Source: Bacteroidales bacterium (GTDB lineage: Bacteria; Bacteroidota; Bacteroidia; Bacteroidales; JAADGE01). From it: a stretch of DNA of 35,814 nucleotides. The notes beneath the pieces are model-generated. The model searched no databases and was not told the DNA's origin. It saw only the letters and a list, made by a program, of their open reading frames with translations. The translations under genes and the position numbers were made by a program. This document shows, in pieces, positions 15,347 to 31,792 of the stretch (positions are counted from its first letter, which is position 1; each line of letters starts with the position of its first letter). The stretch is taken from NCBI GenBank assembly GCA_021108035.1, contig JAIORQ010000111.1:1-35814 (forward strand), in the 5' to 3' direction.

Positions 15347-15398
15347 ATCTTTCTATATATTAAATGTGTTTATAATATAATTCGTTGTCATATCTTAT

Positions 15399-15447
15399 GG
15401 ATTAAAAATCCTGTACAGTTACTTTCGGATTACAAATCCGAAAGAGC
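15399..15447. repeat. Double-hairpin REP element, copy 1
   Basis: Two adjacent hairpins: GGATT-AAA-AATCC (15399-15411), a linker TGTACAGTTA, then CTTTCGGATT-ACA-AATCCGAAAG (15422-15444), followed by AGC. The second copy is 221 bases downstream with the same layout. The pair-of-hairpins form with a conserved linker is typical of REP elements mobilised by RAYT transposases; none is in the window. Confidence 0.8.
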
Positions 15448-15508
15448 ACCAATTATTTTTTCAATCGGAAAAGATATTGATTTTTTTCTGACTGTCAAAA
15501 AAATATTG

Positions 15509-15516: not shown

Positions 15517-15619
15517 CAGTCCTTATGACATAATAAAGGAAGTATTCAAGCCTTTTTGTCTGTAAAGAGTATGATTGTACAATTTTTGTAATATTTATTT
15601 TAAAATTTGCATTTTAATT

Positions 15620-15668
15620 GGATTTTAAATCCTTTACAGTTACTTTCGGATTACAAATCCGAAAGAGC
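15620..15668. repeat. Double-hairpin REP element, copy 2
   Basis: GGATTTTAAATCC (15620-15632), linker TTTACAGTTA, then the same second hairpin CTTTCGGATT-ACA-AATCCGAAAG (15643-15665) and AGC. The second hairpin is identical to copy 1; the first hairpin and linker differ at a few bases. It ends 11 bases before the mature 5' end of tmRNA. Confidence 0.8.
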
Positions 15669-15679
15669 AAAAAATCTTT

Positions 15680-16110: not shown

Positions 16111-16186
16111 ATTTAATAAAAAAATAACAAATCTTATGAAATATTCTATATCTATATTCATATTTTTGCTTTTTTAAACTTTAATT

Positions 16187-16642
16187 ATGAAAAACATAGC
16201 ACTTGTAGCGCACGATAACAGAAAAGTTGATCTTATTGAATGGGTAAGTTATAATTGGGAAGAAATAATAAAGCACAAAATATATTGCACGGGAACAACC
16301 GGAAAGTTAGTTGAACAAGCCTTAAAACAACAATGCGAAGAACATAACTGTAATTTGCCGGAAATTATAAAATTAAAATCAGGACCTTTGGGTGGGGACC
16401 AACAAATGGGTTCTTTGATTACTGAAAATAAAATCGACCTTTTTATTTTCCTGTGGGACCCGATGCAACCACAAGCACATGATGTTGATGTAAAAGCACT
16501 TTTAAGAATTGCGGTTTTGTACAATGTTCCGACAGCATGCAATCGTTCTACGGCAGATTTTATGATTTCATCTCCGTTAATTAATGAGGATTATAAACCT
16601 TTGATAAAAAATTATACGGAATATATTAACAGAGAAGTCTAA
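16187..16642 (+). CDS. mgsA: Methylglyoxal synthase
   Basis: MgsA converts dihydroxyacetone phosphate to methylglyoxal and phosphate, a bypass that relieves sugar-phosphate stress. The 151-residue protein has the full set of family motifs: NIALVAHDNRKVDLIEWV at the start, the phosphate-binding CTGTTG (about 34-39), the catalytic KSGPLGGDQQMG segment, FLWDPMQPQAHDVDVKALLR with its catalytic Asp/His, and VPTACNRSTADFM. The length matches the family. It is monocistronic, starting about 76 bases after the ssrA terminator and converging on the NAD(P)-binding gene. Confidence 0.97.
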   Translation: MKNIALVAHDNRKVDLIEWVSYNWEEIIKHKIYCTGTTGKLVEQALKQQCEEHNCNLPEIIKLKSGPLGGDQQMGSLITENKIDLFIFLWDPMQPQAHDVDVKALLRIAVLYNVPTACNRSTADFMISSPLINEDYKPLIKNYTEYINREV

Positions 16643-16688
16643 ACATAAATATTGTTAAATTGTTAAATTGCTTCATTGTTAAATGTTG

Positions 16689-17600
16689 TCATTTTCGTCT
16701 CGACAATTCATTTGCATACTTTTTTCCGAGTGTGTTTTTATTTTCTTTTACCCATTCGCTTAACTTTATTTTTCCTGTTGGTTCTTCATTAACATAAAGA
16801 AGATTTTGCATCAATCCCTTTATTTCTTCTTTTGTAATTGTTACGTCTTTTTTCAGAAAGCTGATAATTTTACCAACATAATAAGCAATTTGCGGCGATG
16901 TATTTATTATTCTTTTTCGAATTCCGATATTTTTCATTATTGCTGAAACCAATTCTTTATATGTAAAAGTTTCCGGACCGATTGCATTTATTATTTTATT
17001 ATCGGGATTTTCAATTTCTTTAATAATTATATCTGCAAAGTCCTCTACATGAATCGGTTGCAGTTTGTAATCACCCTTGCCAAAAACACCCGTAATCGGT
17101 AAATGTCTTATCATCCAAGCAATATTATTAATTAAAATATCTTCTTTCCCGAATAAAACAGCAGGGCGAATTATTGCATAAGCCGGTATAATTTCTTTCA
17201 AATAATTCTCTAATATTCCTTTACCTTTAAAATACTCTAATTCAGAATGTTCATCGGGATTTGTGATACTGACGTGAATAATCTTTTTTACACCTGCTTC
17301 TTTTGCTGCATCAAAGAGAATTTTTGTATTGTCCACAGCTTGATTATGATTGAAATTTCGATGATTGAAACGTACCCAATATGTGTTTATTAAAACATTA
17401 ATATCGGAAAGATTATCTGTTAACAAATCTCTGTTCTCAAAACTTAAAGGAACAACTTCAATTTTTTTTTCAAACGAATTTTTTTTATGAGGCGAATTTG
17501 TTAATGTTTTTACTTGATATCCTTTCTCAAACAACTTTTGTGTTATATATTTTCCTGAGTAACCGAAAGCACCGGTAATTGCAATTTTTTTTGTTTCCAT
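16689..17600 (-). CDS. NAD(P)-binding atypical SDR / NmrA-like protein
   Basis: A 303-residue Rossmann protein. The dinucleotide-binding motif is ITGAFGYSGKYITQKLFEKG at the N-terminus (GxxGxxG form). HVSITNPDEHSELEYFKGKG replaces the usual YxxxK region, and PAYAIIRPAVLFGKEDILIN and LQPIHVEDFADIII follow, as in the NDUFA9/NmrA-like atypical SDRs. These act on quinones, sugars or simply sense NAD(P)H. It follows the GbsR-type regulator gene on the same strand and has the same operator palindrome just before its start, so it is probably the regulator's target. The exact reaction is unknown. Confidence 0.85.
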   Translation of the reverse strand: METKKIAITGAFGYSGKYITQKLFEKGYQVKTLTNSPHKKNSFEKKIEVVPLSFENRDLLTDNLSDINVLINTYWVRFNHRNFNHNQAVDNTKILFDAAKEAGVKKIIHVSITNPDEHSELEYFKGKGILENYLKEIIPAYAIIRPAVLFGKEDILINNIAWMIRHLPITGVFGKGDYKLQPIHVEDFADIIIKEIENPDNKIINAIGPETFTYKELVSAIMKNIGIRKRIINTSPQIAYYVGKIISFLKKDVTITKEEIKGLMQNLLYVNEEPTGKIKLSEWVKENKNTLGKKYANELSRRK

Positions 17601-17615
17601 TTTATATGTTATAAT

Positions 17616-17637
17616 ACTTTCAGAAATTACTGAAAGT
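17616..17637. promoter_or_regulatory. Palindromic operator upstream of the SDR gene
   Basis: ACTTTCAG (17616-17623), six-base spacer, CTGAAAGT (17630-17637): a perfect 8-bp inverted repeat 16-37 bases before the SDR ATG. It differs from the site at 18179-18200 only in its central bases. The likely ligand is the GbsR/MarR-type protein encoded just upstream (inference). Confidence 0.75.
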
Positions 17638-17652
17638 TAATGATAAAAAAAT

Positions 17653-18153
17653 TTACTTTATTAATTTTATAAATGTTGACCAAAACCAATTTTCATCCAT
17701 TTTGATAAATTTACTTAACAAACTATCTGCCTCTGACGCAAATTTCTCAATATTTTCAAGTCTTTCTGAAACAAGTTCATTTTCGGAACTAATTTCTTCC
17801 TCTTTTTTTAAGTTTTTCAAAACTTCCAACATCGGGTCTAATTCTCTTTCTTTTCTGACTTTCATAACACGTTTTAATATAAGCCACATATCTTTTTCCC
17901 CCACAAAATACTCTTTCCTCTCTCCCAGCCTATTTTCTTTATAAACCAAACCCCAATCAATTAAAGTTCTGACATTCATATTAGCATTTCCGCGTGAAAT
18001 CTTTAAACTTTCCATTATTTCTTCAGCACTCAAAGGTATTTCCGTGATTATGAATAAAGCATGAATTTGAGCCAAAGTTTTATTTATTCCCCATTTGGAA
18101 CCAAGACTACCCCATGATTTAATAAATTCTTCTTGTGTTTTATTAAGTTTCAT
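17653..18153 (-). CDS. GbsR/MarR-family transcriptional regulator
   Basis: A 166-residue winged-helix regulator. The N-terminal EEFIKSWGSLGSKWGINKTL and AQIHALFIITEIPLSAEEIM are typical of the GbsR-like group, followed by the recognition-helix region LKISRGNANMNVRTLIDWGL (about 67-86) and the wing VYKENRLGERKEYFVG. The C-terminal half is a long charged helix region for dimerisation. Proteins of this type repress genes in response to small ligands or membrane state. Two near-identical palindromes, one at its own promoter and one before the downstream SDR gene, indicate autoregulation and control of a two-gene regulon. The ATG at 18153 lies 5 bases from a TATCTTTG -7 element. Confidence 0.9.
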   Translation of the reverse strand: MKLNKTQEEFIKSWGSLGSKWGINKTLAQIHALFIITEIPLSAEEIMESLKISRGNANMNVRTLIDWGLVYKENRLGERKEYFVGEKDMWLILKRVMKVRKERELDPMLEVLKNLKKEEEISSENELVSERLENIEKFASEADSLLSKFIKMDENWFWSTFIKLIK

Positions 18154-18157
18154 ATTG

Positions 18158-18200
18158 CAAAGATATAATTCTTTTTATACTTTCAGAAATATCTGAAAGT
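18158..18200 (-). promoter_or_regulatory. gbsR-type promoter with overlapping operator
   Basis: On the minus strand, TATCTTTG (plus 18158-18165) matches the TAnnTTTG -7 element, and a CTG lies 18 bases upstream as a partial -33. That position falls inside the perfect 9-bp inverted repeat ACTTTCAGA-AATA-TCTGAAAGT (18179-18200). A protein bound to the palindrome would cover the -33 region, the layout of autorepression. The 5' leader would be only a few bases. Confidence 0.75.
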
Positions 18201-18302
18201 TTTATTGTTAATTTTTTTTATTACTCAATTGATATATTCAAATTTAAGTTGATTAATAATTAAGATGTACAGTACAAAATAAAATCCTGCAAACAAACTG
18301 CT

Positions 18303-21300
18303 TTAAATTCTTATCCCTAAAACAACAACATCGTCAATTTGTTCAATTTCTCCTTTCCATTCCAAGAAATTTTTTTCCAGGATGTCTTTTTGTTTAGCCA
18401 TTGGTTTATCAACATTTTCAAATAACAGTTGTTTGAATTGTTTATACTTAAATTTGCGTTCATCAGGACCTCCAAACTGATCGGCATACCCGTCACTGAA
18501 CATATAGATATTGTCTCCTTTTTGAAGTTCTATTTCGTGAGTGGTGAATTTATCCATTTTCAGATATATTGCTATGGGCATTCTATCCGGTTTGATTTCG
18601 TAGAAACGATGTCCGTTCGAGTTGTTTCCGTTCATATCAAACTCAAAAACCTTATCATTTTTTGTTTCTAATTTTCCTTTTCTAATTATGTATAAAGAAT
18701 TATTAGCTCCTGAAAATTGGAGACTGTTTTTTTCATGATTAATTGATATCAAAGCCATATCCATACCGTCTTGAGAACCGGTTTCGTTTCCTTTTTGTCT
18801 TAAAGCGTTTATAATTTCTTTTCTTAATTTTCTTAAAATAACACCTGTATGAGTTATGTATTCTTTATTCACTATTTCTCGCAAAAATGAAACGCCGAGC
18901 ATACTCATAAACGCACCCGGAACCCCATGACCTGTACAATCAGCCGCAGTAATAATTGTATGATTCTCAATATGGGACCACCAATAAAAATCACCACTTA
19001 CTTTATCTTTTGGATTAAATAAAACGAAGTGATCAGAGAGAAATTCTTTCAGTATATTTTCATTCGGCAAAATGGATGCCTGTATTCTTGTGGCATAATT
19101 AATACTGTCTGTAATGTGTTCATGAATTTCCTCAATTTCTTCTTTTTGTTTAACAACAGTATCCCTTTGGGTCAATATCTCTTCATTTCTTGAATTTAAT
19201 TCATCATTTTGTGCCTTTATCTCCTCGCTTTGCAGTCTTACTTCTTGTGTGCGCTCCTCAACTGTTTTTTCAAGTTTTACATTATCTCGTTTGAGTTTTC
19301 GTTCTCTGAATTTAATTAAAGCTATAATTAACAGGATGCCGGCAAGAACTTCCAATGTATAAAACCACCAAGTTTTCCAAAAAGGAGGTGTTATGATAAT
19401 CTTTAACGAAACTCCTTCCTCATTCCAAACCCCGTCATTATTTGAAGCTTTAACACGGAAAGTGTATTTGCCGGGAGCAAGATTAGTGTATTTTGCTTTG
19501 CGGTCTTTGTAATCGGTATATATCCAATCTTTGTCAACCCCTTCAAGCATGTATGCGTATTGGTTTCGTCTGGGGTCTGTGTAGTCTAAAGCAACAAATT
19601 CAAAAGTTATAAAATTATTTGTATAATCTACTTTTATTAATTTCTTTTCATATACAGCACTGTCAGGAATATATTCTTTATCATTTATTTCAATATATGT
19701 TATTGCAACTGTAGGAGGAATTTTATTAATATTATCAGGAATAAATGAACAAATTCCCAGAGTTCCGAAAAAACCTCTTTCATCTCCTAAATGGAATATA
19801 CTGTCAGAAATATTATGAAAGAAATAATTGTCTAAATAATCGCCACCTCTGTGATAATTAATAAAACTCTCATTTTCCGGATTAAATTTTGAAATGCCAA
19901 AATTTGTAGAAAACCAAAGTTTCCCGAAATTATCCATATACATGTCTGCAATAGTATTGTCGATTAATCCGTTTTTTTCTGTAAAATGAGAAAATTGCTT
20001 AGTATTTAAATCAAATTTATAAAATCCGTTCCCTGTTGAAATCCAAATAATATTATCATTTTGTACGACTCCTGAATGATAAATTCTATTTCTTAAATTA
20101 TAATAATTTATTTCCGAATGCATAATAAATAAATTTTCCTTAATTTTTTCATTATTCAAATTATAAGATATTAATTTAGCTTCTGTAGAAAACCATAGTG
20201 TATTATTATCATTATCAAAGATAATATTTCCGAAAAAATAATTTTCATTTTTAAATTCTTCCTTAAATTTATATATTTCTTTAATCTTATAAGTTTCAAT
20301 ATCAAAAATATATACTCCTGCAAATGTTCGAATTATTAATTTATTGTTTAAGTTTAAAATATAGTCAATTATATTATTCTTACCATATTCATTAGATTTT
20401 AAATCAGCTCTTGGTATTAATTTGTTTTTTTCAAGTTGATAAACCTTGTTTAGTGTAAACACCCATGTTTTTTGGTCTTCTGATTGATAAACAGAGAGAA
20501 TTCTACTGTCAGATTCAATACTGTCCGTAAAAGTATTATTATCTTTATCAAATAACAGTAATATATTTTTTTGAGATATCCATATTTTATTCTCATTACT
20601 GACAAAAATGTACGCATTGCGCCAATCAATATTTCGATCTATAATAAAAGAATCTGTTTTTTCAGATTCAAAATCATAGACCCTCAAGACATATTTTCTA
20701 TGGTTCTCAAATATAGCATCTAAATAATAAAAACAATTATCTTTATAATAAGCAGCTCTGCAATCAGATGTTCGATATTCAGTTTCAGGGTGGTAAAATT
20801 TTATTTTTTTTGTTGAATTCTTGAAAATTCCTTTATTTGTTACCAAAAAAATATTTCCTGTTTTATCAATAAAAATGTCATTATATCTTATATGTTCACC
20901 CTCCTTTAGTTTGTTTATTAATTTGGAATTATCATAAGTAAGAATACTTTTTGTTTGAAAATCATAAAAGAATAAATCATTATAAGCAAACCACATTCCG
21001 TTTCTGTGTTTGTCAATTGCTAATGCATTACATCTATCATTATGAATTAATGTAGCATCTTTTTCTTTTAAATCTATTTTTAAGATACCACCAATTAACC
21101 ACCAAACATTTCCTATATGATCAGCATAAATATCATCAAAGGCATAAGAAGTTGGTGTCATGTTTGTAGCCTTAAACCAGTCGAACTCAGTAAATTCAAA
21201 CTCTTTATTGCTGTTTTGAACATACAAACCTTTTGATGTCAGCATACTTATTCGTTCTTCATTATTTAAGAATATATTATACACATCACCAATTTCAGAA

Positions 21301-22220
21301 CTTATAAGGTTATTTATATTTGCTATTTTTTCAGGAGATTCAAATATTCTGACTCCGTAAAAATTTCCTAAAGTTGGTTTTGGCTCATTCCAATTATTAA
21401 AAGAATGGGAATCGTCACTAATATATCTTAAGTTGTAATTTCCCTTTTTAAAATTTAAAATTTTTATTTCAATTCTATTCTTTAATGCACCTCCGGCATA
21501 TCTTGTATTATTGTAATTCATTTTCCATATTGTGTCTTCACCTTTTAAGAGCATTCCGTAATCAAACATATCAACATCTCCTTCACCAATACACGCCAAC
21601 ATAATCTCATTATCTTTATCAATTGTAAAATTAATTACTGTGTCTTGAAGGTTTGATATATGAGATAGTTCAGCAATGATTTTTTCATCCTTATTATTGA
21701 TATAATCTAAAAGATTATCTGAAAAAGGACTGTATCCTTCTTTCAATTTTTGATTTTTTTTGTTGTAAGAATATACATCTGTTCCTTCTAATATCCACAA
21801 AATACCATCTTTGTCCTTAATGATTTTATCAAATGAAACAGAATCATTGACAAGTTTTGTAAATTGAGAGTTTCTATTATTTTTCAAAGAATAAAAATCT
21901 ACAACTTTATTTTCAGATCTAACATTTATTAAAAGCTCTCCTTCATCACCAAAAAAATAAGAAGACCCATAGGATTGAACAGTTGTGCTGTCATTTGGAT
22001 AATATTTATGATATAATACACTATTCCCATCGTAACGATACATTCCGTTGATGAATCTCATAAACCAAAGAAATCCTTTCGCATCTTGTTTAATTTCTAA
22101 TATGTCAAAAAAAGAATTCCCGTTTTGGTCATAGATTTCCTCAAATTCAAGCTCATTTTTTTGGGCAATACCAGATAGAATTATAAAAATGAAGAAAAAG
22201 AAGAAAAACAGTTTTTTCAT
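18303..22220 (-). CDS. Two-component-propeller receptor fused to SpoIIE/PP2C phosphatase (A)
   Basis: A 1305-residue membrane receptor. Signal peptide MKKLFFFFFFIFIILSGIAQ; then a periplasmic region of about 900 residues with Reg_prop beta-propeller repeats (e.g. GFLWFMRFINGMYRYDG, GKLWFSTNFGISKFNP) and a Y_Y_Y domain (ITFEFVALDYTDPRRNQYAY, PGKYTFRVKASN); one membrane helix (about 948-968); a coiled coil rich in E/Q/N; and a PP2C-type SpoIIE phosphatase. Metal-binding motifs look intact: KVSGDFYWW, AADCTGHGVPGAFMSMLG, FSDGYADQFGG, IDDVVVLG. The last domain presumably dephosphorylates an anti-sigma-factor antagonist or similar target after ligand sensing; no such partner is nearby. Residues about 983-1280 appear identical at DNA level to the next gene. 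Confidence 0.93.
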   Translation of the reverse strand: MKKLFFFFFFIFIILSGIAQKNELEFEEIYDQNGNSFFDILEIKQDAKGFLWFMRFINGMYRYDGNSVLYHKYYPNDSTTVQSYGSSYFFGDEGELLINVRSENKVVDFYSLKNNRNSQFTKLVNDSVSFDKIIKDKDGILWILEGTDVYSYNKKNQKLKEGYSPFSDNLLDYINNKDEKIIAELSHISNLQDTVINFTIDKDNEIMLACIGEGDVDMFDYGMLLKGEDTIWKMNYNNTRYAGGALKNRIEIKILNFKKGNYNLRYISDDSHSFNNWNEPKPTLGNFYGVRIFESPEKIANINNLISSEIGDVYNIFLNNEERISMLTSKGLYVQNSNKEFEFTEFDWFKATNMTPTSYAFDDIYADHIGNVWWLIGGILKIDLKEKDATLIHNDRCNALAIDKHRNGMWFAYNDLFFYDFQTKSILTYDNSKLINKLKEGEHIRYNDIFIDKTGNIFLVTNKGIFKNSTKKIKFYHPETEYRTSDCRAAYYKDNCFYYLDAIFENHRKYVLRVYDFESEKTDSFIIDRNIDWRNAYIFVSNENKIWISQKNILLLFDKDNNTFTDSIESDSRILSVYQSEDQKTWVFTLNKVYQLEKNKLIPRADLKSNEYGKNNIIDYILNLNNKLIIRTFAGVYIFDIETYKIKEIYKFKEEFKNENYFFGNIIFDNDNNTLWFSTEAKLISYNLNNEKIKENLFIMHSEINYYNLRNRIYHSGVVQNDNIIWISTGNGFYKFDLNTKQFSHFTEKNGLIDNTIADMYMDNFGKLWFSTNFGISKFNPENESFINYHRGGDYLDNYFFHNISDSIFHLGDERGFFGTLGICSFIPDNINKIPPTVAITYIEINDKEYIPDSAVYEKKLIKVDYTNNFITFEFVALDYTDPRRNQYAYMLEGVDKDWIYTDYKDRKAKYTNLAPGKYTFRVKASNNDGVWNEEGVSLKIIITPPFWKTWWFYTLEVLAGILLIIALIKFRERKLKRDNVKLEKTVEERTQEVRLQSEEIKAQNDELNSRNEEILTQRDTVVKQKEEIEEIHEHITDSINYATRIQASILPNENILKEFLSDHFVLFNPKDKVSGDFYWWSHIENHTIITAADCTGHGVPGAFMSMLGVSFLREIVNKEYITHTGVILRKLRKEIINALRQKGNETGSQDGMDMALISINHEKNSLQFSGANNSLYIIRKGKLETKNDKVFEFDMNGNNSNGHRFYEIKPDRMPIAIYLKMDKFTTHEIELQKGDNIYMFSDGYADQFGGPDERKFKYKQFKQLLFENVDKPMAKQKDILEKNFLEWKGEIEQIDDVVVLGIRI
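18382..19274. repeat. 893-base identical tract, copy A (PP2C half)
   Basis: Compared line by line with 22376-23268, offset 3994, I find no mismatch or gap across 893 bases. On one side (18303-18381) the two genes drop to 7 differences in 79 bases. On the other (above 19274) they diverge at once, though the proteins stay homologous. It covers the coiled coil and nearly the entire phosphatase domain. Confidence 0.9.
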
Positions 22221-22238
22221 GATGATAGAGTTTGAATA

Positions 22239-22278
22239 TAAATATCAAAAAAATTGAATGCTAAATATATGAAAAAAA
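22239..22278 (-). repeat. 40-base identical upstream element, copy A
   Basis: Just upstream of receptor A's ATG (22220), 40 bases are identical to 25681-25720, upstream of receptor B. On the gene strand the sequence contains TATATTTA, one base off the TAnnTTTG -7 element, and a TTTTTTTGATATTT run. It is probably the shared promoter/leader; no canonical -33 TTG was placed. Confidence 0.75.
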
Positions 22279-22296
22279 TTGGATTTTAGCAGATGT

Positions 22297-25200
22297 TTAA
22301 ATTTTAATCCCCAAAACAACAACATCATCAATCTGTTCAATTTCTCCTTTCCATTCCAAAAAATTTTTTTCCAGTATGTCTTTTTGTTTAGCCATTGGTT
22401 TATCAACATTTTCAAATAACAGTTGTTTGAATTGTTTATACTTAAATTTGCGTTCATCAGGACCTCCAAACTGATCGGCATACCCGTCACTGAACATATA
22501 GATATTGTCTCCTTTTTGAAGTTCTATTTCGTGAGTGGTGAATTTATCCATTTTCAGATATATTGCTATGGGCATTCTATCCGGTTTGATTTCGTAGAAA
22601 CGATGTCCGTTCGAGTTGTTTCCGTTCATATCAAACTCAAAAACCTTATCATTTTTTGTTTCTAATTTTCCTTTTCTAATTATGTATAAAGAATTATTAG
22701 CTCCTGAAAATTGGAGACTGTTTTTTTCATGATTAATTGATATCAAAGCCATATCCATACCGTCTTGAGAACCGGTTTCGTTTCCTTTTTGTCTTAAAGC
22801 GTTTATAATTTCTTTTCTTAATTTTCTTAAAATAACACCTGTATGAGTTATGTATTCTTTATTCACTATTTCTCGCAAAAATGAAACGCCGAGCATACTC
22901 ATAAACGCACCCGGAACCCCATGACCTGTACAATCAGCCGCAGTAATAATTGTATGATTCTCAATATGGGACCACCAATAAAAATCACCACTTACTTTAT
23001 CTTTTGGATTAAATAAAACGAAGTGATCAGAGAGAAATTCTTTCAGTATATTTTCATTCGGCAAAATGGATGCCTGTATTCTTGTGGCATAATTAATACT
23101 GTCTGTAATGTGTTCATGAATTTCCTCAATTTCTTCTTTTTGTTTAACAACAGTATCCCTTTGGGTCAATATCTCTTCATTTCTTGAATTTAATTCATCA
23201 TTTTGTGCCTTTATCTCCTCGCTTTGCAGTCTTACTTCTTGTGTGCGCTCCTCAACTGTTTTTTCAAGAATTACTTTTTGCTTTTTTAATTTTTTTGTAT
23301 TAAGTTTTACAATTACATAAACGGCAATAACTACCAAAAGACCATATACAATATATGCAAAAACAGTTCTGTACCATGGTGGTTTGATTATAAATGTATA
23401 TTCGGCGGTTTCACTTTCGATACCATAAATATTTTTTGTTTTAATTTTAAAAGTATATTTTCCTTCTCTTAAATTTGAATATTCTCTCGAATTACCCTTA
23501 AACCATCTTGACCAATCATTATCATTCCCTTCAAGTAAACAACGATATTCAATATTTTCAGGTTGAACAAATTCAATTGTTGAAAACGAAAACCGAACTG
23601 AATTTTTTTCGTAAGGTAATGAAATAATCATTTCTTTCGGTTGTTCTGCTATTATTTTTCCTGTATTATCGCCAAACGTCCCATTAAATACAATATATGA
23701 ACTATCTTGATTTACTGTTTGTTCAAATTCTCTTATTAAAACAGGGGAAGCATGTAATTTCTTAACATCAAAATTATTGTTAAATAATGTAAAGCCAATA
23801 TCATTACCAATGACAAATAAACTGTCATTAATTTGTTTAAAATTGTATATATCATTTTGGAACTGTTTAAATATGTCTTCCTCTACTGTATAAGTATCAT
23901 CCTCATTTATACTTAAGCGAACTAAATCCCAATAATATGCATCGACTCTGTTTTTATTTGGTTTTTGGGTTTTTAGCCAAATATCACCTTTGCTGTCTGA
24001 ATTAATAAATATTACTTGTTTATTTCCAATTGCATTATTTATATTGTTCTCCGGATAGAAATAATCTTTTCCCTTATTATACTTGTATATCCCTTTTTTT
24101 GTAGCAAAAACAATTTCATTATTAATTTTACAAACATTATTATCCAAGCTGTCAGGCAAACCGTTTGATGTTTTATATAAATCAATTTTTATAACAGAGT
24201 CTAATGAATTATTAAGTTGCAATTTATATATTCCTTTTTCTCTGTCAGAGATCCAAATCTTACCGTCAATATCTTGTTGCATATGTCTGCATTTTTGGTC
24301 AAATCCTTTAATTTTATTTTTAAATACCCATTTGTTGTTTTTGTTTTCAACCAGAATTAATCCTTTACTACCACCAACAAGCAGATAATTAGAATAATTA
24401 AAAAGCTTGGAAAAAGCATAAACACTATTTTCTTTTAAAATATATTCTTCCTTATGGTTTTTCAAAATAAACAACCCCTGACTTCCGGCACAATAAAGCT
24501 CATTATTAATGGTGTCAATTTTATATATATGAAAATCATTAATCTGCTTAAAATTAGCCTCTTGAATGAGTGATTTGTTCCATTCTACACTGTATAAACC
24601 GTCACCTCCCACATAAAGATTTTCTTCAAATAATAAAGCGTCCCATATGTAATCAGAAAGACTGTAATCAGCGTCGAAAAAGGAAAAGGGGGTATTAAAA
24701 TTTAATACTGTGATACCATCATTAGTGCCCAACCATATATTTTTGTTGTTATCAACAAAGACAGAGAAAATTGTATTATTAATTAGTCCGTTTTCAATGG
24801 TAATATGTTTAATAATATTAAATTTTTTGTCAATAATAAAAAGTCCTTTACCGTAGGATCCCAAAATATAATAATCATTATGATACTTGCTGTATGAATA
24901 TGTATTGATTAGAAGTTCATTTTTTTTTAAAGGTTCAATTTTACCTTGATTATAAATAAATTGACCTTCAAGCCAAGTAAGTATCAACATTTTGTTGTCA
25001 TCAGTCGGAAACATTCCTACTATCCAAATATCAGAAAACAGTTCTGTATTTGGCAATAAATCAATTTTACCGTTATTAAATTTTACTATCCCTTTTCCTT
25101 TAACTTGAATATATAAATTATTTTTAATTTTAAATCCTTGAATAAAAACATTACCCGGGTTTTGAATGTCAATTATTTTAAAAATGCCCTTTGAAAAAGT

Positions 25201-25647
25201 AAATAATGAACTCGGACTTAAAAAAACTACTTCATTTTTATTTGTAACATAAATCCCTCGAACAAACTTAAAGTTTTGTTTGTCCTTTGGTAACTTATCC
25301 TTAAGTGAAACATATTTTGTTGTACCGGTCGAATCAGCAATAAGATAGCCAAGTTCATTTTTCCCGCCGACATATATCTTCCCTGTCTTATCCTTTTTCA
25401 AAGCATAAACTAAACTGGTGGGTATTTTTATCGTTTTCCATATAAGCCCGTCATATTCTAATATGTTATTATCTGTTCCGAGGTAAATTACACCTCTGTT
25501 ATCTTGAACATAGGCAAATATCTGGGGAGCACCTTGATATTCTTTTTTAGAATAATTTTTTAATATTGGTTTTCCCGGTAAAAATTGTGCATATATATCT
25601 GTAAATATTAATAAAAAGAACAAAAGAAGTAAAATCAGTTTTTTCAT
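22297..25647 (-). CDS. Two-component-propeller receptor fused to SpoIIE/PP2C phosphatase (B)
   Basis: A 1116-residue paralogue of receptor A, with a shorter sensor. Signal peptide MKKLILLLLFFLLIFTDIYA; propeller repeats such as GVIYLGTDNNILEYDGLIWK, NKNIWLGTNDGITVLNF and GKIWISDREKGIYKLQL; a Y_Y_Y domain (VRFSFSTIEFVQPENIEYRC, EGKYTFKIKT); one membrane helix (about 758-779); a coiled coil; and the SpoIIE phosphatase with the same intact metal-binding motifs as receptor A. The sensor halves share architecture but little sequence, implying different ligands, while residues about 794-1091 are identical to A. Transcribed in the same direction, 76 bases upstream of receptor A, which has its own upstream element, so the two genes may be separately initiated. 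Confidence 0.93.
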   Translation of the reverse strand: MKKLILLLLFFLLIFTDIYAQFLPGKPILKNYSKKEYQGAPQIFAYVQDNRGVIYLGTDNNILEYDGLIWKTIKIPTSLVYALKKDKTGKIYVGGKNELGYLIADSTGTTKYVSLKDKLPKDKQNFKFVRGIYVTNKNEVVFLSPSSLFTFSKGIFKIIDIQNPGNVFIQGFKIKNNLYIQVKGKGIVKFNNGKIDLLPNTELFSDIWIVGMFPTDDNKMLILTWLEGQFIYNQGKIEPLKKNELLINTYSYSKYHNDYYILGSYGKGLFIIDKKFNIIKHITIENGLINNTIFSVFVDNNKNIWLGTNDGITVLNFNTPFSFFDADYSLSDYIWDALLFEENLYVGGDGLYSVEWNKSLIQEANFKQINDFHIYKIDTINNELYCAGSQGLFILKNHKEEYILKENSVYAFSKLFNYSNYLLVGGSKGLILVENKNNKWVFKNKIKGFDQKCRHMQQDIDGKIWISDREKGIYKLQLNNSLDSVIKIDLYKTSNGLPDSLDNNVCKINNEIVFATKKGIYKYNKGKDYFYPENNINNAIGNKQVIFINSDSKGDIWLKTQKPNKNRVDAYYWDLVRLSINEDDTYTVEEDIFKQFQNDIYNFKQINDSLFVIGNDIGFTLFNNNFDVKKLHASPVLIREFEQTVNQDSSYIVFNGTFGDNTGKIIAEQPKEMIISLPYEKNSVRFSFSTIEFVQPENIEYRCLLEGNDNDWSRWFKGNSREYSNLREGKYTFKIKTKNIYGIESETAEYTFIIKPPWYRTVFAYIVYGLLVVIAVYVIVKLNTKKLKKQKVILEKTVEERTQEVRLQSEEIKAQNDELNSRNEEILTQRDTVVKQKEEIEEIHEHITDSINYATRIQASILPNENILKEFLSDHFVLFNPKDKVSGDFYWWSHIENHTIITAADCTGHGVPGAFMSMLGVSFLREIVNKEYITHTGVILRKLRKEIINALRQKGNETGSQDGMDMALISINHEKNSLQFSGANNSLYIIRKGKLETKNDKVFEFDMNGNNSNGHRFYEIKPDRMPIAIYLKMDKFTTHEIELQKGDNIYMFSDGYADQFGGPDERKFKYKQFKQLLFENVDKPMAKQKDILEKNFLEWKGEIEQIDDVVVLGIKI
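22376..23268. repeat. 893-base identical tract, copy B (PP2C half)
   Basis: The partner of 18382-19274, in direct orientation, 3994 bases away. Both borders are sharp: a G/T difference at 18381/22375 and TT/AA just past 19274/23268. Confidence 0.9.
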
Positions 25648-25680
25648 GGCAAAAGAGTTTTTTATAATCCAAAAAAGGAT

Positions 25681-25720
25681 TAAATATCAAAAAAATTGAA
25701 TGCTAAATATATGAAAAAAA
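25681..25720 (-). repeat. 40-base identical upstream element, copy B
   Basis: Identical over 40 bases to 22239-22278 and placed 34 bases upstream of receptor B's ATG. Sequences on either side differ, so the conservation is specific to this element. Probably the promoter/leader shared by the two receptor genes. Confidence 0.75.
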
Positions 25721-25747
25721 CAGGAATATATTAATCAAGAAATTAAT

Positions 25748-26080
25748 TTAGTCAGCACAATTTACACAAAACCTGCTTTGAGGCATAAAAAGTAAACGCG
25801 GAACAGGGATAGCTTGTTTGCATCTTTGACATAGCCCGAAATCTTCATTACCCAAAGTTTTTTGCATATATTTTAATCCTTCAAGTTTCTTTTCAGCTTG
25901 TCGGAGTGCGGCTTCCGTAACGCTCTTGTTGTTTATAGCGTCCATACGAGAAATTCTGCCTATTGCACAATCCGGAGCAATCGGCTTATTTAACTCTTTA
26001 TAATCAGCAATTTTTTTCTTCGTTTTTGAAATCTCTTGTGAAATTTTTATTCTAATTTCTATTTTTTCGGATTCATTCAT
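25748..26080 (-). CDS. DksA/TraR-type C4 zinc-finger protein
   Basis: A protein of 110 residues from the chosen ATG (MNESEKIEIRIKISQEISKT). The N-terminal two thirds is a helical coiled coil (EISKTKKKIADYKELNKPIA ... ALRQAEKKLEGLKYMQKTLG). The C-terminus is the zinc finger LCQRCKQAIPVPRLLFMPQS followed by RFCVNCAD, i.e. C-x2-C-x17-C-x2-C. This is the DksA/TraR family layout; members bind RNA polymerase through the secondary channel and modulate transcription initiation, often with ppGpp. The coiled-coil tip does not carry the classical DxxDxA motif that I can see, so it may be a divergent member. A longer start at 26107 adds nine residues, but the 26080 start overlaps the upstream stop (8 bases), fitting translational coupling. 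Confidence 0.82.
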   Translation of the reverse strand: MNESEKIEIRIKISQEISKTKKKIADYKELNKPIAPDCAIGRISRMDAINNKSVTEAALRQAEKKLEGLKYMQKTLGNEDFGLCQRCKQAIPVPRLLFMPQSRFCVNCAD

Positions 26081-27035
26081 CTTCCTCTGTTTCTTGATTA
26101 TACTCATTGTATAGTTCTCTTAATTGCTGATGAAAATATACTTTTCCCTTATCTTTTGTTTTGTTTTCAACTTCAAAAACAACATCACCGGTATTTGTAT
26201 CAATTTTTTCCGAAACTTCAATTTCTTCTCCGTATCTTCTGTTTCTCAAAAGAATACGAATGGCTTGAACCAATCTTTCCAAATTATTGGAATAGCCCTC
26301 AGGAACATTTAAAGAGGGTATATCTGTTAAAATGATTAGACGATCGCCTGACATATTAGTCAGTTTAAATACTTTTGCAATGCCTATTTCCATTTCTTCA
26401 TTATCAATAAACTTATATTCCAAATTTAAGGTATCATTACTTACCGAAGCAATATCATCAAAAAAATACTCATTAGTTCTTTCATCATGAATTGAAGAAT
26501 TTATCCAATCGTAAATACATGAATAATAGCTGATAAAATTATCTGTTACAATTAAAATTTGCACCATCCAAATTGAATATGTATAAGTTCCGTCTTCTCC
26601 AATTTTTCTGCTTATTTGTTCAGTAGTGAAACCGGGCAATTGCCAATAAACAGGATAAGGTACAATAATAATATTTTCATCTTTAATACTTGAAGGATTA
26701 ATCTTCAACTGCTCAAGAGCTTTAGGTTTTATTACTTCATGAATATCTTCTGAAAACCAAATATCCATATCTCCGTCAGCAGCTTTTGAAGAGAATATAA
26801 TACCGGATGAAATAAAAGGTTTTATCAAAATCCATAAAGAAAACAATCCGACCAAAATAAAAACTACACTGATAACCGTAAAATCACCTATAATTTCAGC
26901 TTGCTCTAAATATAACATCAAAATACCGAGTATGAACACAATAAGGCCATATCTTGCATATTTTTTCAAAGTCGGTAAATCCGGCTCATCAAAATCAAAA
27001 TAATTATTGATCAGCTTCCTTTTATCACTACTCAT
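26073..27035 (-). CDS. Two-helix membrane protein of unknown function
   Basis: A 320-residue protein. Two membrane helices lie near the N-terminus: about 27-43 (YGLIVFILGILMLYLEQ) and 54-73 (VISVVFILVGLFSLWILIKP). The remaining 240 residues are hydrophilic and probably cytoplasmic, with an acidic end (NEYNQETEEDE). I recognise no family. The segment DNIIIVPYPVYWQLPGFTTE followed by WMVQILIVTDNFISYYSCIY suggests a globular domain. Its stop overlaps the start of the DksA-like gene, so the two are probably co-translated and may act together. A perfect 16-bp palindrome sits just upstream of its ATG. Confidence 0.8.
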   Translation of the reverse strand: MSSDKRKLINNYFDFDEPDLPTLKKYARYGLIVFILGILMLYLEQAEIIGDFTVISVVFILVGLFSLWILIKPFISSGIIFSSKAADGDMDIWFSEDIHEVIKPKALEQLKINPSSIKDENIIIVPYPVYWQLPGFTTEQISRKIGEDGTYTYSIWMVQILIVTDNFISYYSCIYDWINSSIHDERTNEYFFDDIASVSNDTLNLEYKFIDNEEMEIGIAKVFKLTNMSGDRLIILTDIPSLNVPEGYSNNLERLVQAIRILLRNRRYGEEIEVSEKIDTNTGDVVFEVENKTKDKGKVYFHQQLRELYNEYNQETEEDE

Positions 27036-27040
27036 ATGGT

Positions 27041-27056
27041 AATCTTTATAAAGATT
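27041..27056. promoter_or_regulatory. Perfect 16-bp palindrome
   Basis: AATCTTTATAAAGATT is its own reverse complement and lies 6 bases upstream of the minus-strand membrane protein ATG, in the intergenic region shared with mlaE. A dimeric regulator could bind here. AT-rich palindromes also arise by chance, so this is tentative. Confidence 0.4.
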
Positions 27057-27190
27057 ATGTAAAGATAAAAATAATTATATTAAGGCAAATTGAATATTGC
27101 CGTAAGATAAGTAAATTTGTTCTTTAATTGAATAACAGTTAAATATTTAAAATTATTTTACTTACTTTGTAGATGTAGCAAATAAGTTTA

Positions 27191-27931
27191 ATGAATACAT
27201 TTTATCATATAGGAAGATATCTGCTTTTCATGAAAAAGGTCTTCAAAAGACCTCAAAAATCTTCAATATTTTTAAATAATGTTTTTTTCGAGATTGAAAA
27301 ACTGGGTATCAATTCAATTATGATTGTTTTAATTATTTCTGTTTTTATGGGTGCTGTAATTACCCTACAAACGGCATATAATATTGAACTTTCTTTTGTA
27401 CCGCTTTATTTGGTTGGTCTCGGAACCAGAGATTCAATGTTTTTGGAGTTCTCATCAACCATTGTAGCATTAATCCTTGCCGGAAAAGTAGGTGCCAATA
27501 TTGCTTCGGAAATAGGTACAATGAAAATACATGAGCAGATTGAAGCACTTAATATGATGGGTGTGAATTCTGAAAGTCATTTAGTTCTGCCAAAAATCAT
27601 TGCTGCTGTTCTTACATTTCCCTTACTTACATTGTTCAGTATGTTCATTGGTATATTAGGGGGTTATTTGGCTGTTTATTTTACAAATGCCGTTCCCATA
27701 GATGATTTTGTATATGGACTCCATTATTATTTTATCCCTTTTTATATAACATATTCTTTAATTAAAGTTGTAATATTTGCTTTTATAATTGCTACAATAC
27801 CTGCATACCATGCATATTATGTACAAGGAGGAGCTTTAGAAGTTGGTAAAGCCAGTACTAAAGGTGTGGTTTATTCCAGCATATTAATTTTATTCTTCAA
27901 TGTTGTGATAACTCAAATCCTTTTATCTTGA
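27191..27931 (+). CDS. mlaE: MlaE-type ABC transporter permease
   Basis: A 246-residue integral membrane permease of the MlaE/YrbE family, part of the system that moves phospholipids between the membranes to keep the outer membrane asymmetric. Typical features: an N-terminal amphipathic interfacial helix (about 1-35), FMGAVITLQTAYNIEL, then TIVALILAGKVGANIASEIG, the conserved core IHEQIEALNMMGVNSESHLV, PKIIAAVLTFPLLTLFSMFI, and the end KASTKGVVYSSILILFFNVV. About five membrane segments. mlaF follows with a 4-base overlap. No mlaD (MCE) gene is present in the window. Confidence 0.93.
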   Translation: MNTFYHIGRYLLFMKKVFKRPQKSSIFLNNVFFEIEKLGINSIMIVLIISVFMGAVITLQTAYNIELSFVPLYLVGLGTRDSMFLEFSSTIVALILAGKVGANIASEIGTMKIHEQIEALNMMGVNSESHLVLPKIIAAVLTFPLLTLFSMFIGILGGYLAVYFTNAVPIDDFVYGLHYYFIPFYITYSLIKVVIFAFIIATIPAYHAYYVQGGALEVGKASTKGVVYSSILILFFNVVITQILLS

Positions 27932-28674
27932 TAGTCGCAAAAAACATATCGAAATCCTTCAATGATAATCATGTTTTGAATGATATTTCACTGATATGCA
28001 AAAAAGGAGAGACTAATTTGATCATCGGAGAAAGCGGTTCCGGTAAAACCGTTCTTTTAAAGTCAATATTAGGAATTCACCAAATAGACAAAGGACAGAT
28101 TATATACGGTGATGATATTTTCACTGATATGAATCATAAAGAAAAGCAAAAGATACGACAGGAGATCGGTATGGTTTTTCAAGGCGGTGCACTTTTTGAT
28201 TCTTCCACAGTATTTGAAAACATTATATTTCCTCTGCAAATGTTTTCAAAGATGAGCAAGGCAGAAATGCATAATCGAGTAAGATTTTGTCTTGAGCGTG
28301 TTAATCTTCACAATGTTGATGATCTTTATCCGTCTGAGATCAGCGGAGGTATGCAAAAAAGAGTCGCAATAGCGAGAGCTGTTGTTTTAAATCCTAAATA
28401 TCTTTTTTTTGATGAACCTAATTCAGGTTTGGATCCGAAAACAGCAATCGTTATTGATAATTTGATAAAAGAGTTAACCATTGATTTTAATACCGTTACC
28501 GTAATTAATACTCACGATATGAATTCTGTTGCTGAGATCGGCGATAATATTGCATTTATTTATAACGGACAAAAATGGTGGTACGGTAATAAAGAAGAAA
28601 TAATGCACACAGATAATAAAGAGCTGAATGATTTTGTTTTTGCAACCAAATTAATGCGTGATCTAAAAAAATAA
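27928..28674 (+). CDS. mlaF: MlaF-type ABC transporter ATPase
   Basis: A 248-residue ATP-binding subunit powering the MlaE permease. Walker A GESGSGKT (34-41), Q-loop MVFQGGALFD (82-91), ABC signature SGGMQKRVAIARA (139-151), Walker B YLFFDEP (158-164) with D-loop SGLDP, and an H-loop His in NTHDMNS. The start is TTG at 27928, overlapping the mlaE stop as TTGA; an ATG-initiated version would lose the first strand of the domain, so TTG is preferred. The overlap supports translational coupling. Cytoplasmic face of the inner membrane. Confidence 0.95.
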   Translation: MIVAKNISKSFNDNHVLNDISLICKKGETNLIIGESGSGKTVLLKSILGIHQIDKGQIIYGDDIFTDMNHKEKQKIRQEIGMVFQGGALFDSSTVFENIIFPLQMFSKMSKAEMHNRVRFCLERVNLHNVDDLYPSEISGGMQKRVAIARAVVLNPKYLFFDEPNSGLDPKTAIVIDNLIKELTIDFNTVTVINTHDMNSVAEIGDNIAFIYNGQKWWYGNKEEIMHTDNKELNDFVFATKLMRDLKK

Positions 28675-31633: not shown

Positions 31634-31792
31634 CACAAATTTTTGGCTGTTATTAATATGGTTCTCTTGTTATTTTTATGAAACAATTTTTTATAAATGT
31701 AGTTATATGACTGATTTAAATGATCAAATGCTATAATGATTGAATGCTTAAATAAAACAAAAAGATATTATTGAGATTAATATTTTCATATA

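What the first reader, a model, noticed from the sequence alone, without database searches (positions are those of the whole stretch)
18382..23268. 893-base identical tract joins two otherwise diverged receptor phosphatases
The coiled coil and SpoIIE domain of receptors A and B match base for base over 893 positions (no mismatch found by eye). The 79 bases at the 3' end of the genes differ at 7 positions, and the sensor halves differ widely. Sharp borders inside a homologous domain point to recent gene conversion or recombination, not simple duplication. The result is two different sensors wired to one identical output, so both ligands would act on the same downstream target. Concerted evolution of the output domain may be a general way this lineage multiplies sensors.
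Basis: partly seen in the sequence, partly recalled or inferred. Interest (0 to 1): 0.72.

Follow-up and report, generated by a model that had tools for sequence, protein, structure and literature searches.

The report
Tandem receptor genes, one shared output
Two neighbouring bacterial receptor genes carry very different outside sensors but an output enzyme that is letter-for-letter identical over 893 bases, most likely because one copy recently overwrote the other, a known kind of event seen here in an unusually clean form.

Summary
Window 18382-19274 equals 22376-23268 at 893 of 893 bases. The last 79 bases of the genes differ at 7 sites, nothing aligns past the stops, and identity collapses upstream, just after the transmembrane helix. 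All 7 differences falling in the last 79 of 972 bases has P = 1.8e-8. Synonymous changes: tract 0 of 297 codons, tail 6 of 26, orthologues in a near relative 75 of 1435. So the outputs had diverged and 893 bases were homogenised recently: gene conversion is best supported, on the 3' side. The 5' border is simply where homology ends. New here: A and B also share an exact 40-base leader, so both ends match and only the sensors differ. Three of three relatives tested lack the pair at this site. The output's nearest relatives found lie in other families. In this genome the tract is unique among 630 SpoIIE gene pairs. A looser parallel exists in another family. Closest published case: Campylobacter Tlp2/3/4. 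Assembly could hide sparse differences; no reads were available.

The parts
18303..22220 (-). receptor A, 1305 aa: hydrophobic N-terminus (signal peptide), Reg_prop propeller, Y_Y_Y domain, one transmembrane helix, coiled coil, SpoIIE/PP2C phosphatase
   Evidence: ORF; Pfam; hydropathy
22297..25647 (-). receptor B, 1116 aa: same plan with a shorter and different sensor; lies upstream of A in the direction of transcription, 76 bases between the genes
   Evidence: ORF; Pfam
18382..19274 (-). identical tract in A (codons 983-1280), coiled coil plus most of SpoIIE
   Evidence: 893 of 893 identical
22376..23268 (-). identical tract in B (codons 794-1091)
   Evidence: 893 of 893 identical
18303..18381 (-). 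tail of A, not homogenised: 7 of 79 differ from B; contains the last metal-site Asp pair
22297..22375 (-). tail of B, not homogenised
22239..22278 (-). 40-base leader upstream of A, identical to that of B
   Evidence: core pattern (0 of 100 shuffles reach 2 matches)
25681..25720 (-). 40-base leader upstream of B, identical to that of A
18309..18965 (-). SpoIIE phosphatase domain of A (PF07228)
   Evidence: aa 1086-1304
22303..22959 (-). SpoIIE phosphatase domain of B (PF07228)
   Evidence: aa 897-1115
19392..19586 (-). Y_Y_Y domain of A
23383..23571 (-). Y_Y_Y domain of B
18204..25748 (.). stretch holding A and B that is absent from the same site in G005; absent too from G001 and G010, where the gap is larger
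   Evidence: G005:C8 matches window 16185-18203 then 25749-28656 with 6 bases between

Best explanation
A and B are two tandem receptor phosphatases. A periplasmic propeller sensor drives, through one transmembrane helix and a coiled coil, a cytoplasmic SpoIIE (PP2C) phosphatase. They descend from a duplicated gene unit (leader, signal peptide, sensor, output) in which the sensor half came to differ (replaced or exchanged; inferred). The two outputs then drifted to about 9% difference. Recently a RecA-type gene conversion between the tandem copies, 3994 bases apart, overwrote 893 bases of one output. It ran upstream to the point where homology ends at the sensor/output junction, and stopped 79 bases before the end of the gene. 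The result is two sensors on one near-identical phosphatase (one Arg/Lys difference). Shown: the identity, its borders, the synonymous-site contrast, the shared leader, the absence of the pair from the site in three relatives. Inferred: direction of copying, mechanism, origin of the pair outside the genus, ligands, and the target (a STAS- or SiaC-like phosphoprotein).
For: 893 of 893 against 72 of 79 identical. All 7 differences in the last 79 of 972 bases, P = 1.8e-8; synonymous differences 0 of 297 codons (86 fourfold sites) against 6 of 26 in the tail, P = 1.5e-7; G000/G010 orthologues 75 of 1435. The tail is not a fast-evolving end: mean identity to 118 other outputs 0.49 in the tail, 0.51 in the body. 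A and B tails are closest to each other, 72 of 79; the best outside tail reaches 62, the best in the own genome's other SpoIIE genes 56. Exact 40-base leader, local score 100 against a shuffle maximum of 50. Pair absent from the site in 3 of 3 relatives. Full-length relatives of sensor B in the genus reach 40% at most; those of sensor A match only its last third or less, at 37-40% for the best. A second tandem pair of this genome (C9) has exact patches of 345, 180 and 89 bases within genes 88.75% alike, and 97 bases upstream of them. G217 has a tandem pair with 84% outputs and 31% sensors.
Against: The 5' border coincides with the end of homology, so only one border is diagnostic. The tail contrast rests on 26 codons. 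No donor or recipient can be named. The assembly is a 116-contig draft and no reads were available; a repeat longer than the read length would be rebuilt from one consensus, which can hide sparse differences. Hidden differences at 1 per 33 bases would weaken the contrast to P = 0.016. The nearest outputs found are only 58-66% identical, so no close outgroup dates the event. Two propeller receptors of other organisms (L100, L101) lie in the wider clade of this output (95), so the output may be native to some propeller receptors and no swap need be assumed for A.
Confidence: 0.68

Rival explanations
1. Assembly collapse. The two outputs differ at sparse sites, and the assembler merged them into one consensus used twice (a simple loop in the assembly graph).
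For: Genome is a 116-contig draft; the tract is longer than usual short reads; the tandem order gives a graph with only one possible path, so the loop can be closed from short reads (inference).
Against: Merging by shared words needs sparse differences. At the tail's 9% (one per 11 bases) few or no long shared words would exist and the copies would stay apart (inference). Even 16 hidden differences leave P = 0.0015 for the contrast with the tail, 27 leave P = 0.016. The window has no N.
Confidence: 0.13
2. Recent output capture. A gene with a different sensor received a fresh copy of its neighbour's output through illegitimate joining, and the 79-base tail was left over from its own older, closely related output or came from a third gene.
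For: The 5' border is at the domain junction. The output lies in a clade with TPR- and PAS-linked outputs, away from the outputs of sensor B's nearest kin (tree; domains; about 41% identity).
Against: The tails are closer to each other than to any other tail examined, so the recipient already had a sister output, which makes this conversion in effect. The shared leader needs a separate explanation.
Confidence: 0.12
3. Purifying selection alone keeps the outputs identical.
For: Catalytic domain under constraint.
Against: 0 changes at 86 fourfold sites while the tail carries 6 synonymous changes; other SpoIIE pairs in the genome share at most 34 exact bases.
Confidence: 0.02

Closest known systems
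Campylobacter jejuni chemoreceptors Tlp2, Tlp3, Tlp4 (PMC9769880, passages read; PMC6433261, passages read)
   Same: Paralogous receptors with about 30% identical sensory regions and, in that paper's words, identical signaling domains. PMC6433261 reports extensive recombination among these receptors and a large invertible region bounded by them.
   Different: Chemotaxis receptors in another phylum; the passages explain them by duplication and divergence, not by conversion. Here: SpoIIE phosphatases, adjacent tandem genes, a shared leader, and a residual unconverted tail that dates the event.
SiaA of Pseudomonas aeruginosa (PDB 6k4e; PMC7647112, passages read)
   Same: Only solved structure found by sequence at E up to 0.001; E = 4.4e-30, matching coiled coil and phosphatase.
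   Different: Different sensor and genome context; none of the eight neighbouring genes scanned with Pfam is a SiaC match; SiaB was not looked for elsewhere.
Bacteroides hybrid two-component systems (PMC11253607 and PMC3243724, search listing only)
   Same: Reg_prop and Y_Y_Y sensor plan (recalled for that family).
   Different: A and B have no His-kinase, receiver or DNA-binding domain in Pfam.
Gene conversion among bacterial rRNA operons (PMC8022953, passages read)
   Same: RecA-dependent copying between near-identical repeats in one genome.
   Different: Here only the output half of a protein gene is homogenised.

Membership tests
SpoIIE/PP2C phosphatase receptor | PF07228 above the curated cut-off | tested here: met
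   57.7 and 57.6 bits against a cut-off of 25
SpoIIE/PP2C phosphatase receptor | metal-binding Asp motifs intact | tested here: met
   GDFYWW, DCTGHG, SDG and DDVVVL present in both; their Asp residues face Asp in 6k4e; the roles of the motifs are recalled
SpoIIE/PP2C phosphatase receptor | phosphatase activity on a STAS-type protein | not testable with these tools
   needs an assay
Hybrid two-component system | HisKA, HATPase, receiver and HTH domains | tested here: not met
   none among the Pfam hits of A and B
Ectopic gene conversion tract | identical stretch ending inside a more diverged homologous stretch | tested here: met
   3' side only
Ectopic gene conversion tract | 5' border inside homologous sequence | tested here: not met
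   border lies at the sensor/output junction; identity 0.60 then 0.28-0.43 upstream
Ectopic gene conversion tract | synonymous sites also identical | tested here: met
   0 of 297 codons, 0 of 86 fourfold sites
Ectopic gene conversion tract | identity confirmed by reads | not testable with these tools
   no reads available
SiaABC-like pathway | SiaA-like phosphatase with SiaC and SiaB partners | tested here: inconclusive
   output nearest to SiaA; a SiaC gene lies beside other SpoIIE genes at G000:C24, not among the genes scanned beside A and B; SiaB not searched

The most novel reading that the evidence does not exclude
In Bacteroidales, tandem SpoIIE receptor loci act as sensor-exchange arrays. 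The leader and the output are kept alike by recombination and serve as homology arms, while whole sensor halves are gained, swapped or lost between them. The A/B pair is a freshly homogenised array. G217 with its relative G117 shows the gain or loss of one sensor-plus-output unit at the output border.
Probability: 0.22. Interest if true: 0.7.

Novelty: new variant of a known kind. Interest (0 to 1): 0.42.

Why it matters
It is a clean natural case of two sensors joined to one near-identical output, with a residual tail that shows the outputs had diverged before being made alike. It predicts an unstable locus: recombination between the two tracts would delete sensor A and fuse sensor B to A's tail. 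It would let one test whether bacteria add senses by reshuffling sensor halves onto a homogenised output. The pattern itself has precedent in Campylobacter chemoreceptors, so the surprise is moderate.

Tried and rejected
Third close copy of the tract in the genome: none found; next best-scoring match 66% DNA (40 of 212 candidates scored). Exact matches among the 36 SpoIIE genes: one search is the valid count (both strands, 630 pairs). Searches compared some loci on one strand only, held 33 of 36 genes, and two of its rows were overlapping loci; they gave 30 as the next longest, one search gives 34. The number 36 comes from 39 matches, merging the split rows of A, B and the C84 gene. Fast-evolving 3' end: rejected. 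Donor search: best outputs 58% over full length and 62% over part in genome contigs, and 66% in 393 genomes of the order, of which at most 5 candidates each were scored; no near donor. Relatives of the sensors in 14 genus genomes: at most 40% over the whole of sensor B, 37-40% over the last third or less of sensor A for the best hits; short partial matches run higher. Family search for B with a strict cut-off: 3 of 21 genomes including its own. Base composition as a sign of transfer: sensors 27-28% GC, tract 33%, rest of window 31%, not decisive. Target-site duplication or mobile gene at the insertion: none seen by eye, not tested further. Literature: no paper found on SpoIIE propeller receptors with shared outputs, in an open-access library only; listings and a few passages were seen, not whole texts.

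The leader test covered 16 of the 19 adjacent pairs; three were left out (L279, L144 and the first L123 pair). L099 and L279 look like the same pair fetched twice. The L276 leader score comes from the coding tail of the preceding gene, not from a leader. The tree (quick method, long branches flagged by the tool) was capped at 95 rows, best first; one search counted 168 distinct hits by a slightly different rule. The tail comparison used the 122 loci; one search adds 36 own-genome open frames, some repeated.
Full report
WHAT IS THERE. The window is placed at C111:1-35814 of a 4.96-Mb draft genome in 116 contigs. Two long genes lie in tandem on the minus strand: B (22297-25647, 1116 aa) and, 76 bases downstream in transcription, A (18303-22220, 1305 aa). 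Pfam gives both the same plan: Reg_prop propeller, Y_Y_Y domain and SpoIIE phosphatase, with no His kinase, receiver or DNA-binding domain. Hydropathy shows a hydrophobic N-terminus and one further transmembrane helix in each, at residues about 950-973 (A) and 758-785 (B).

THE OBSERVATION. Window 18382-19274 and 22376-23268 are the same 893 bases. The tract begins just after the transmembrane helix, in the coiled coil (codon 983 of A, 794 of B), and ends 79 bases before the end of the gene. The tail differs at 7 of 79 sites. Past the stop nothing aligns. Upstream of the tract, identity in 60-base bins is 0.60, 0.40, 0.43, 0.28. The sensors are about 29% identical in a global alignment, and the main BLAST alignment of the sensors covers only their last part, with the Y_Y_Y domain.

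IS IT CHANCE OR CONSTRAINT? All 7 differences in the last 79 of 972 bases has P = 1.8e-8. Synonymous differences are 0 of 297 codons in the tract, including 0 of 86 fourfold sites, and 6 of 26 codons in the tail, P = 1.5e-7. The tail is not a generally faster end: across 118 other outputs, identity to this output averages 0.49 in the last 26 residues and 0.51 in the body. The A and B tails match each other at 72 of 79; the best outside tail reaches 62, the best among the genome's other SpoIIE genes 56. So the two outputs are sisters that had diverged before the tract was made identical.

A ROUGH CLOCK. G010 of the same genus matches the window's right flank at 96%. Over six genes there, 75 of 1435 codons differ synonymously, 5.2%. 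The A/B tail (6 of 26) is more diverged than that, P = 0.002; the tract (0 of 297) is far less. From the 5.2% rate, zero in 297 has a probability near 1e-7 (my arithmetic). The homogenisation is therefore younger than the G000/G010 split, while the split of the two outputs looks older. The tail is only 26 codons, so the second statement is weaker.

THE LEADER, A NEW OBSERVATION. A and B also share an exact 40-base stretch upstream of their start codons (22239-22278 and 25681-25720), followed by a looser match through the first codons. A 33-base core of it occurs twice in the window; none of 100 shuffles gives two matches. Of the 280 loci held, 5 contain it, all fetched from this place. In 16 of the 19 adjacent SpoIIE pairs tested, one other pair shares a leader, and that one (L174) is a whole-gene duplication; one more score (L276) comes from coding sequence of the preceding gene. 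So in A and B both ends match and the middle differs. The simplest reading is a duplicated whole unit whose sensor half was later replaced or exchanged. That step is inferred.

WHERE THE PAIR CAME FROM. In G005 the sequence matching window 16185-18203 runs, after 6 bases, into that matching 25749-28656. In G001 the match to 16187-16658 abuts the match to 25757-26026. In G010 about 270 bases separate the two sides, and the matches to the MarR and NmrA genes are missing too. The pair is thus absent from the site in 3 of 3 relatives examined; the other genus genomes were not checked at the site. In 14 genus genomes no full-length relative of sensor B exceeds 40%, and the best relatives of sensor A match only its last third or less, at 37-40%. 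The output's nearest relatives found are in other families of the order, up to 66% (393 genomes, at most 5 candidates each scored). In the tree it sits in a clade of eight outputs (SH-aLRT 98, quick method); four of these were scanned and carry TPR or PAS domains. The outputs of sensor B's nearest kin form a separate group and are mostly about 41% identical to it. Against a clean swap, two propeller receptors from elsewhere (L100, L101) lie in the next wider clade (95). Acquisition from outside the genus fits, but base composition does not decide it.

IS IT GENERAL? In this genome no other pair among 36 SpoIIE genes shares more than 34 exact bases (630 pairs). Another tandem receptor pair, at C9, with the same sensor class but PAS and His-kinase domains (copy 1 scanned), is 88.75% identical, with exact patches of 345, 180 and 89 bases inside it and 97 bases upstream. 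The homologue in G010 resembles copy 2 in its first half and copy 1 near its 3' end. Of 69 loci from genome contigs, none holds an exact direct repeat longer than 88 bases. Of 19 adjacent pairs in 122 loci, A/B is the extreme: outputs 0.98, sensors 0.29. Next is G217 with 0.84 and 0.31; a whole-gene duplication (L174) has 0.71; pairs in G085 have 0.62-0.66 and 0.25-0.28; the rest lie at 0.35-0.52. In G217, gene 741 has a sensor 60% identical to that of G117's gene 743, yet its output is slightly closer to its tandem neighbour (0.84) than to G117's (0.81). The 105 or so bases after G117's single gene match those after the second G217 gene, not the first, so one sensor-plus-output unit was gained or lost at the output border. 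This supports a recurring tendency, not a rule.

HOW IT WORKS. The most likely function is ligand-controlled dephosphorylation: a propeller sensor outside, a PP2C phosphatase inside. Catalytic motifs are intact, and the nearest solved structure is SiaA of Pseudomonas aeruginosa (PMC7647112, passages). The genome has 36 SpoIIE genes (split rows merged) but 2 PF01740 STAS matches and 2 HATPase_c_2 matches above cut-off (other STAS families not searched), plus at least one SiaC-like protein beside two other SpoIIE genes. Many phosphatases may therefore share few targets, and an identical output is not needed for convergence. The ligands are unknown.

ASSEMBLY. No reads were available. The tandem order gives an assembly graph with a single path, so a short-read assembler could rebuild both copies from one consensus and hide sparse differences (inference). 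It could hardly hide 9% divergence, because the copies would then share few long words. With 16 hidden differences the contrast with the tail keeps P = 0.0015; with 27, P = 0.016.

COMPARISON. Receptors with identical signalling domains and divergent sensors are known: Tlp2, Tlp3 and Tlp4 of Campylobacter jejuni, with about 30% identical sensory regions (PMC9769880, passages). What differs here is the output type, the adjacent tandem order, the shared leader and the residual tail. I rate it a new variant of a known kind.

The recount changed the next longest exact match from 30 to 34 bases; the identities claimed for the sensors in the genus, the patches of the C9 pair and the tree statement were narrowed.

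Noticed in passing
L172 (G000:C9:40500-50500): Tandem Reg_prop/Y_Y_Y/PAS/His-kinase pair, 88.75% identical with exact patches of 345, 180 and 89 bases and 97 bases upstream; the G010 homologue looks like a mosaic of the two copies.
   Followed up: partly
L272 (G217:C14) and L278 (G117:C24): Tandem TPR-SpoIIE pair with 84% outputs and 31% sensors; the relative G117 has one gene with the flank of the second.
   Followed up: partly
L173:4586-4948 (G000:C24): SiaC-family phosphoprotein gene beside two PAS-SpoIIE genes, a candidate target for SpoIIE phosphatases of this genome.
   Followed up: no
window 31646-31794: Short stretch that matches nine other G010 contigs at 74-81%, likely a dispersed repeat; the G010 counterpart of this place lacks about 96 bases of it.
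   Followed up: no
window 15398-15458 and 15619-15679: 61-base direct repeat, 89% identical, between the alanine dehydrogenase-like gene and the MGS-domain gene.
   Followed up: no
window 16663-25742: Variable site in the genus: MarR and NmrA genes matched in G005, not in G001 and G010 at this site; A and B only in this genome of the four compared.
   Followed up: partly
L174 (G000:C83:44000-49000): Tandem SpoIIE open frames of 371 and 373 aa, about 76% identical in DNA over 1111 bases and with similar leaders, an ordinary whole-gene duplication.
   Followed up: no
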